A DNA stretch of 64,000 nt from Thermococcus bergensis. GTDB taxonomy: Archaea; Methanobacteriota_B; Thermococci; Thermococcales; Thermococcaceae. Shown here in pieces: positions 45,972 through 46,684 of this stretch. The number at the start of each line of letters is the position of its first letter. Position 1 is the first letter of the stretch. The stretch spans positions 124,001 through 188,000 of the forward strand of contig NZ_JABFNK010000003.1 of NCBI RefSeq assembly GCF_020386975.1, read 5' to 3'. Both the position numbers and the translations under genes were made by a program. Below the pieces are notes generated by a model, which saw nothing but the letters and a program-made list of their open reading frames with translations, had not been told where the DNA came from and made no database searches.

Positions 45972-46070
45972 ATGACTTCAGAAAAAGAAAAGATTCTCCA
46001 GCAAGTAGTAGAGGAAATCTGGAACACGGGAAATGTGGAGTTAGTAGACAAGTTTTATGTCCCAAACTTT

Positions 46071-46116
46071 CTGACCTCCTCCCCGCCGTGAAGGGCAAGG
46101 CTTTCAAGAGAAAGAT
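46071..46116 (-). mobile_element. 46-bp insertion resembling an IS200/IS605 terminal hairpin
   Basis: The insert interrupts the SnoaL reading frame (46 bp, frameshift). Read on the minus strand it contains CCTTGCC-CTTCAC-GGCGGGG, which folds as RNA into a seven-pair stem with two G-U pairs, then GAGGAGGTCAG. As I remember them, ends of archaeal tnpB elements look like this (GAAAGCCT...GGGGAGGAGGTCAG). It is only an end, without any gene: a solo relic or minimal element. Confidence 0.5.
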
Positions 46117-46356
46117 GTAAACCATGACCCTGTTAACCCAAATGTCAAAACTCTTGAACAGTTCAGAGAATGGGTGCTCTTTAACCATAAAGTATTTCCG
46201 GACTTTCATGTAACCATTGAAGATACCATTGCCCAAAGCGACAAGATAGTAAAACGATGGACAGCTACTGGAACCCATAAGGCTGAGATGATGGGCATTC
46301 CCCCAACCAACAGGCAAGTAACCATCCGAGGAGTTGCTATATACCGCTTTGAAGGG

Positions 46357-46602
46357 CTGTTTTGTGGATTATAACATTTGAAGCTTTTGATTGCTTTTGA
46401 TAACCAAAATTTATATTTGCATTTTTGCATACTGTTAATGGTGTAGCAGTCCCCGGTATGTGGGTTTTTAAGCCCGAATGGGGATTAAAAACGGAAGATG
46501 TGGGGAGTCACCGTTCCCCCCGAAAGCCCTCCAATGAAGACGGGAGGAGGGAAGGTTATCCGCTACGACCGTTTCACCAGTCCCAAAAGTAGCGGATAAC
46601 CA
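46357..46602 (+). other. ~246-bp insertion with strong hairpins, candidate structured RNA or tnpB 3'-end relic
   Basis: Located inside the SnoaL pseudogene. From about 46441 the sequence is dense in complementary arms: TCCCC/GGGGA (about 46450-46483), GGGGA/TCCCC (46502-46520), CCCTCC/GGAGGG (46527-46551), and a 13-bp perfect stem GGTTATCCGCTAC (46554-46566) with GTAGCGGATAACC (46589-46601). It also reads open in one frame (KPEWGLKTEDVGSH...), like the Ser/Arg-rich tails of TnpB. An omega-RNA-bearing relic of an IS200/IS605 element is the favoured reading; a MITE is an alternative. Confidence 0.45.
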
Positions 46603-46684
46603 GAACGGATATGATATGCTTAACATGCTACAGCAACTTGGTGCTTTCCCCCAAAAATGATAGTATTCCCCGCTAAGTTCTTTT

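What the first reader, a model, noticed from the sequence alone, without database searches (positions are those of the whole stretch)
46357..46602. Highly structured ~246-bp insertion inside a pseudogene
The insert carries at least four strong hairpins, the last a 13-bp perfect stem (46554-46566 with 46589-46601), and no complete gene. It interrupts a SnoaL-like gene whose C-terminal codons resume right after it. It looks like the omega-RNA end of a lost tnpB element or a MITE; a free-standing guide RNA of this kind could still be used by a TnpB made elsewhere in the genome.
Basis: partly seen in the sequence, partly recalled or inferred. Interest (0 to 1): 0.6.

Follow-up and report, generated by a model that had tools for sequence, protein, structure and literature searches.

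The report
Mobile mini-element carrying TnpB guide RNA
The insert is a tiny mobile DNA element, found in many related heat-loving archaea, that has lost its protein genes but kept a promoter and the guide-RNA end of a 'TnpB' DNA-cutting system, so it may supply guide RNA to TnpB enzymes made elsewhere in the genome.

Summary
The insert (46356-46606, between GG dinucleotides) is a non-autonomous IS607-family element. The same genome holds 21 copies of its right end: 8 mini-elements of about 260 bp and 13 copies with tnpB, at least 8 of them full 1.85-kb tnpA+tnpB elements. Copies occur in 57 of 94 genomes of the family. The right-end hairpins covary strongly (95.6% of cells paired; 12 double-changed pairs), also among the 28 distinct mini-elements alone; Rfam holds no such family. 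In 26 of these 28 a TATA box lies 38-42 nt before the first RNA helix, even where the left end is shortened, so they read as promoter-driven, free-standing TnpB guide-RNA (omegaRNA) genes. Identical copies at different sites show recent movement. Transcription and TnpB loading are inferred, not shown. The window's copy belongs to an RNA subclass matched by no tnpB in its own genome (78% identity at best), so it may be an orphan. The host SnoaL gene carries a second, 46-bp insert with the HgcC-type right end of a different TnpB family, and lost 27 bp between two GGs beside the main insert.

The parts
45972..46660 (+). SnoaL-family pseudogene that holds both inserts
   Evidence: Orthologues without inserts in seven genomes; Pfam SnoaL 2.4e-37 for one of them; reading frame resumes after each insert
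46071..46116 (-). 46-bp ends-only insert with the right end of a second TnpB family (HgcC-like)
   Evidence: HgcC 27.7 bits, below its gathering score; similar short copies in L037, L051, L052; right end shared with a guided_TnpB element; absent from orthologue L102
46356..46606 (+). IS607-family mini-element (MITE)
   Evidence: Left end GGGCTGTT and right end AGAACGG shared with full elements
46354..46355 (.). left core GG (one of three G; exact register ambiguous)
   Evidence: All copies with a recognised left end have GGG here; flanks otherwise random
46607..46608 (.). right core GG
   Evidence: Right ends CAGAACGG; orthologues have GG before TAYGAT
46404..46416 (+). predicted promoter: A-rich BRE (46404-46409) and TATA box TTTATAT (46410-46416)
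   Evidence: Conserved block and constant distance to the RNA in mini-elements
46440..46608 (+). predicted omegaRNA scaffold; start inferred from the TATA box, end set by the right end
   Evidence: Covariation; start is an inference from TATA position near -27 (PMC5316973)
46448..46486 (+). helix A (46448-46454 with 46480-46486), with inner stem 46462-46464/46473-46475
   Evidence: 96.9% of cells paired, 3 pairs with double changes, in 28 mini-elements
46502..46519 (+). helix C (46502-46506 with 46515-46519)
   Evidence: Almost invariant, so neither supported nor refuted by covariation
46527..46551 (+). helix D (46527-46532 with 46546-46551)
   Evidence: 3 of 6 pairs with double changes
   Evidence: 9 of 13 pairs with double changes
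46609..46628 (+). predicted guide: flanking host DNA after the right end (length of ~16-20 nt assumed)
   Evidence: Inference from known TnpB omegaRNAs; not tested

Best explanation
A non-autonomous IS607-family mini-element. It derives from a tnpA-tnpB element by loss of both genes, leaving left end and promoter joined to the omegaRNA and right end. It moves when the serine recombinase TnpA of a full element acts on its ends, by crossover at GG (GG junctions shown; TnpA in trans inferred). Its promoter would drive a guide RNA of about 169 nt plus a guide copied from the flanking DNA (inferred). TnpB from another copy would load it and cut the matching empty site, which favours keeping the element (inferred by analogy with studied IS607 TnpB).
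For: Full elements with the same ends in the same genome, TnpA an IS607 transposase, TnpB a guided_TnpB with RuvC motifs. GG at both ends with random flanks. Covariation over all copies and in the gene-less copies alone. Pairs kept in mini-elements more than by chance. TATA box at constant distance from the RNA in 26 of 28 copies. Identical mini-elements at different sites.
Against: No transcript data. The window copy's right end is at most 78% identical to tnpB copies in its own genome, so it may be unused. Compensated changes could partly be inherited from coding copies, with which mini-element right ends are mixed on the tree.
Confidence: 0.72

Rival explanations
1. A purely parasitic mini-element: kept only because TnpA recognises its ends. 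The RNA end is a passenger that is not expressed or not used.
For: Ends-only elements from tnpB transposons are known (PMC3119063), and the 46-bp insert in the same gene is one. The window copy has no matching tnpB in its genome.
Against: Mini-elements keep about 170 bp of structured right end with covariation, and a promoter at fixed distance from it, more than an ends-only element needs (inference).
Confidence: 0.25
2. The hairpins serve DNA transposition (as in IS200/IS605 single-strand transposition) rather than an RNA.
For: Hairpins at element ends are typical of IS200/IS605 elements (established knowledge).
Against: The parent TnpA is a serine recombinase of the IS607 type, which moves double-stranded DNA (PMC10711439). 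Covarying helices extend about 160 nt inward.
Confidence: 0.03
3. Native SnoaL sequence or a chance run of hairpins.
For: None found.
Against: Orthologues lack it; more than 150 copies of the right end in 57 genomes.
Confidence: 0.005

Closest known systems
IS607-family elements with TnpB and right-end RNA (ISXfa1, PMC10711439; ISFba1, PMC11061315)
   Same: Serine-recombinase TnpA, TnpB, GG crossover (ISXfa1), structured RNA at the right end, guide from the flank
   Different: Here the element has no genes, a promoter sits directly before the RNA, and a stretch between helix A and the right-end helices present in full elements is missing; the RNA has no Rfam match
PATEs and ends-only tnpB elements (Haloquadratum, PMC3119063; Halanaerobium, PMC7290912)
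   Same: Gene-less derivatives of tnpB transposons; the 271-nt Halanaerobium element also keeps the last tnpB codons and the whole right end
   Different: Those derive from IS200/IS605-type elements; no covariation or promoter is reported in the passages read
HgcC RNA (Rfam RF00062)
   Same: Repeated RNA in AT-rich hyperthermophiles, transcribed from inside transposase genes (PMC4247193)
   Different: Belongs to another TnpB family; it matches the second, 46-bp insert, not this element
Stand-alone omegaRNA loci reported for IscB (from memory, not checked here)
   Same: Guide RNAs encoded away from the nuclease gene
   Different: Here TnpB/IS607, and the guide loci are themselves mobile

Membership tests
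IS607-family non-autonomous element | Same ends as an autonomous element whose TnpA is an IS607 transposase | tested here: met
   Shared left and right ends; TnpA NF033518 transpos_IS607, 243.7 bits over cut-off 110
IS607-family non-autonomous element | Insertion at GG, no target duplication | tested here: met
   GG at both junctions, flanks random; orthologue has GG at the right junction. The left junction lost 27 bp to another GG
IS607-family non-autonomous element | No functional genes; moved in trans | tested here: met
   No tnpA or tnpB in mini-elements; identical copies at different sites. The moving enzyme itself is inferred
TnpB omegaRNA (reRNA) | Conserved RNA structure at the right end, overlapping the 3' end of tnpB in coding copies | tested here: met
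TnpB omegaRNA (reRNA) | Pseudoknot between the 3' end next to the guide and an upstream loop | tested here: inconclusive
   CCG (columns 27-29) can pair with the terminal CGG in nearly all copies, but the pair hardly varies, so covariation cannot test it
TnpB omegaRNA (reRNA) | Transcribed, processed, bound by TnpB and guiding cleavage | not testable with these tools
   Needs RNA sequencing and biochemistry
HgcC (RF00062) | Match to the covariance model | tested here: not met
   Main insert: no match up to E 10; second insert 27.7 bits, below the gathering score of 50
RAGATH-18 and other Rfam families | Match to the covariance model | tested here: not met
   No match up to E 0.5 in L059, L009, L117 and none credible in the window

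The most novel reading that the evidence does not exclude
Mobile, promoter-driven omegaRNA genes that spread apart from the nuclease gene and program a shared pool of TnpB in trans, each insertion adding a guide against its own empty site: a dispersed guide repertoire in Thermococcaceae.
Probability: 0.4. Interest if true: 0.75.

Novelty: new variant of a known kind. Interest (0 to 1): 0.52.

Why it matters
TnpB guide RNAs are usually treated as part of the tnpB transcript. Here an IS607 family has given rise to a size class of gene-less elements that keep a promoter and a shortened natural guide scaffold, in many diverged copies. If expressed, they would show that TnpB can be programmed in trans by mobile guide genes, and they offer naturally minimised scaffolds for a thermophilic TnpB. 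The side finding suggests that HgcC, an orphan small RNA of these archaea, is a TnpB guide RNA of another family.

Tried and rejected
Rfam search for a known family: none for this element. Phage, plasmid and viral-contig searches: no copies. Deriving a TAM from flanks: flanks are random apart from GG, as expected if the transposase and not TnpB chooses the site. Frequent swapping of the right end between mini-elements and coding elements: mini-element right ends are scattered among coding copies on the tree (at least 13 changes forced by well-supported branches), but body and right-end distances correlate about as weakly in mini-elements as in coding copies (r 0.31 against 0.30-0.48), so repeated origin and swapping cannot be told apart. 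Bacterial-type promoter and terminator scan: nothing found, and not suited to archaea. A P. abyssi small-RNA paper that could have held transcript evidence is not in the library.

Full report
Observation. The insert is real. The 13-bp stem is present and the right part folds better than every shuffle. SnoaL orthologues in seven other genomes have no insert, so it is not native sequence. Its limits are GG 46354-46355, element 46356-46606, GG 46607-46608.

What it is. In the window's genome the right end occurs 21 times. Eight copies, the window's included, are mini-elements of about 260 bp. Thirteen carry tnpB; among these at least eight are full elements of about 1.85 kb with tnpA and tnpB, and four are forms of about 1.4 kb without tnpA. 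TnpA is an IS607 transposase (resolvase domain plus helix-turn-helix). TnpB is a guided_TnpB protein that keeps its RuvC and zinc-finger motifs. Copies with a recognised left end begin GGGCTGTT, nearly all end AGAACGG, and the flanks are otherwise random, as expected for IS607 crossover at GG, described for ISXfa1 (PMC10711439). A covariance model of the last 115 nt finds more than 150 copies in 57 of 94 genomes of the family, and none outside the family among 115 genomes of the phylum. Exact pattern matches also occur in some metagenome bins labelled with other archaeal groups, which may be misbinned.

RNA structure. In 39 copies 95.6% of cells pair and 12 pairs change on both sides; no shuffle or slid control comes near. 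In 28 distinct mini-elements alone 95.9% of cells pair and 15 pairs change on both sides, including an upstream helix (46448-46486) whose counterpart in full elements lies in the zinc-finger codons of tnpB. Against the nearest coding copy, 31 of 52 changed pairs remain paired, against 17% expected for random single changes. If half of the changes fell on the coding branch the excess remains (P about 0.005); this is a rough test that does not model relatedness. Because IS607 moves as double-stranded DNA (PMC10711439), covariation points to RNA rather than to DNA hairpins (inference).

Promoter. Mini-elements share a conserved block CGTAATTTTTAAATA, then a variable stretch, then the RNA. The TATA-like motif starts 38-42 nt before the first helix in 26 of 28 distinct copies; two copies whose left end is shortened by about 13-15 nt keep that distance (in one search the helix positions of L147 and L149 are mis-hits, the right ones are). 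With the TATA box centred near -27 in Thermococcus (PMC5316973), transcription would start just before the RNA, near 46440 in the window. A simple motif scan puts the TATA box 31-33 nt from the left end in 30 of 31 distinct full elements, at 55 nt or more in 14 of 16 tnpB-only elements and 21 of 27 mini-elements. A promoter moved away from the transposase-bound end might escape repression by TnpA; this is a guess.

Mobility and fate. Three mini-elements in the genome are identical at different sites, and another two likewise: recent movement. The window copy is different: its right end is 92% identical to that of an element in another genus but only 78% to any tnpB copy in its own genome. It may be a relic of an element no longer present there, and whether resident TnpB accepts it is open.

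The host gene. Relative to orthologues, 27 bp between two GG dinucleotides were lost at the left junction, as if a second GG had been used; a later deletion is equally possible. The same gene has a 46-bp ends-only insert at 46071-46116 with the right end of a second TnpB family. That right end belongs to what Rfam calls HgcC. In this genome the better HgcC matches overlap the 3' ends of genes of 438-447 codons, and two of these, the ones tested, are guided_TnpB proteins. HgcC transcripts from inside transposase genes are known in T. kodakarensis (PMC4247193). HgcC therefore looks like the omegaRNA of that family; no paper found here says so, but the library is incomplete.

Verdict. An IS607 mini-element that keeps a promoter and a TnpB guide RNA. 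Its identity as a transposon derivative is near certain; expression and use in trans are inferred, at about even odds. Ends-only tnpB elements are known (PMC3119063, PMC7290912), so this is a new variant of a known kind. No paper found here describes IS607 mini-elements in Thermococcus, again within an incomplete library.

Noticed in passing
46071-46116 (minus strand): A second, 46-bp insert in the same SnoaL pseudogene, with the HgcC-like right end of another TnpB family; similar short copies elsewhere in the genome (L037, L051, L052).
   Followed up: yes
L029-L058 (own genome): Rfam HgcC matches (36 in the genome at E up to 1) overlap the 3' ends of TnpB genes in the best cases: HgcC looks like the omegaRNA of a second TnpB family.
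   Followed up: partly
46353-46357: 27 bp of the SnoaL gene between two GG dinucleotides are missing at the left junction: use of a second GG by the transposase, or a later deletion.
   Followed up: partly
Left ends of L059-L190 elements: The TATA box lies at 31-33 nt from the left end in tnpA-bearing elements but at about 55-58 nt in most tnpB-only and mini-elements.
   Followed up: partly
L196-L198, L201-L205: Exact right-end matches in metagenome bins labelled Thermoproteota, Hestiella, Desulfurococcales or Archaeoglobales: spread beyond the family or misbinned contigs.
   Followed up: no
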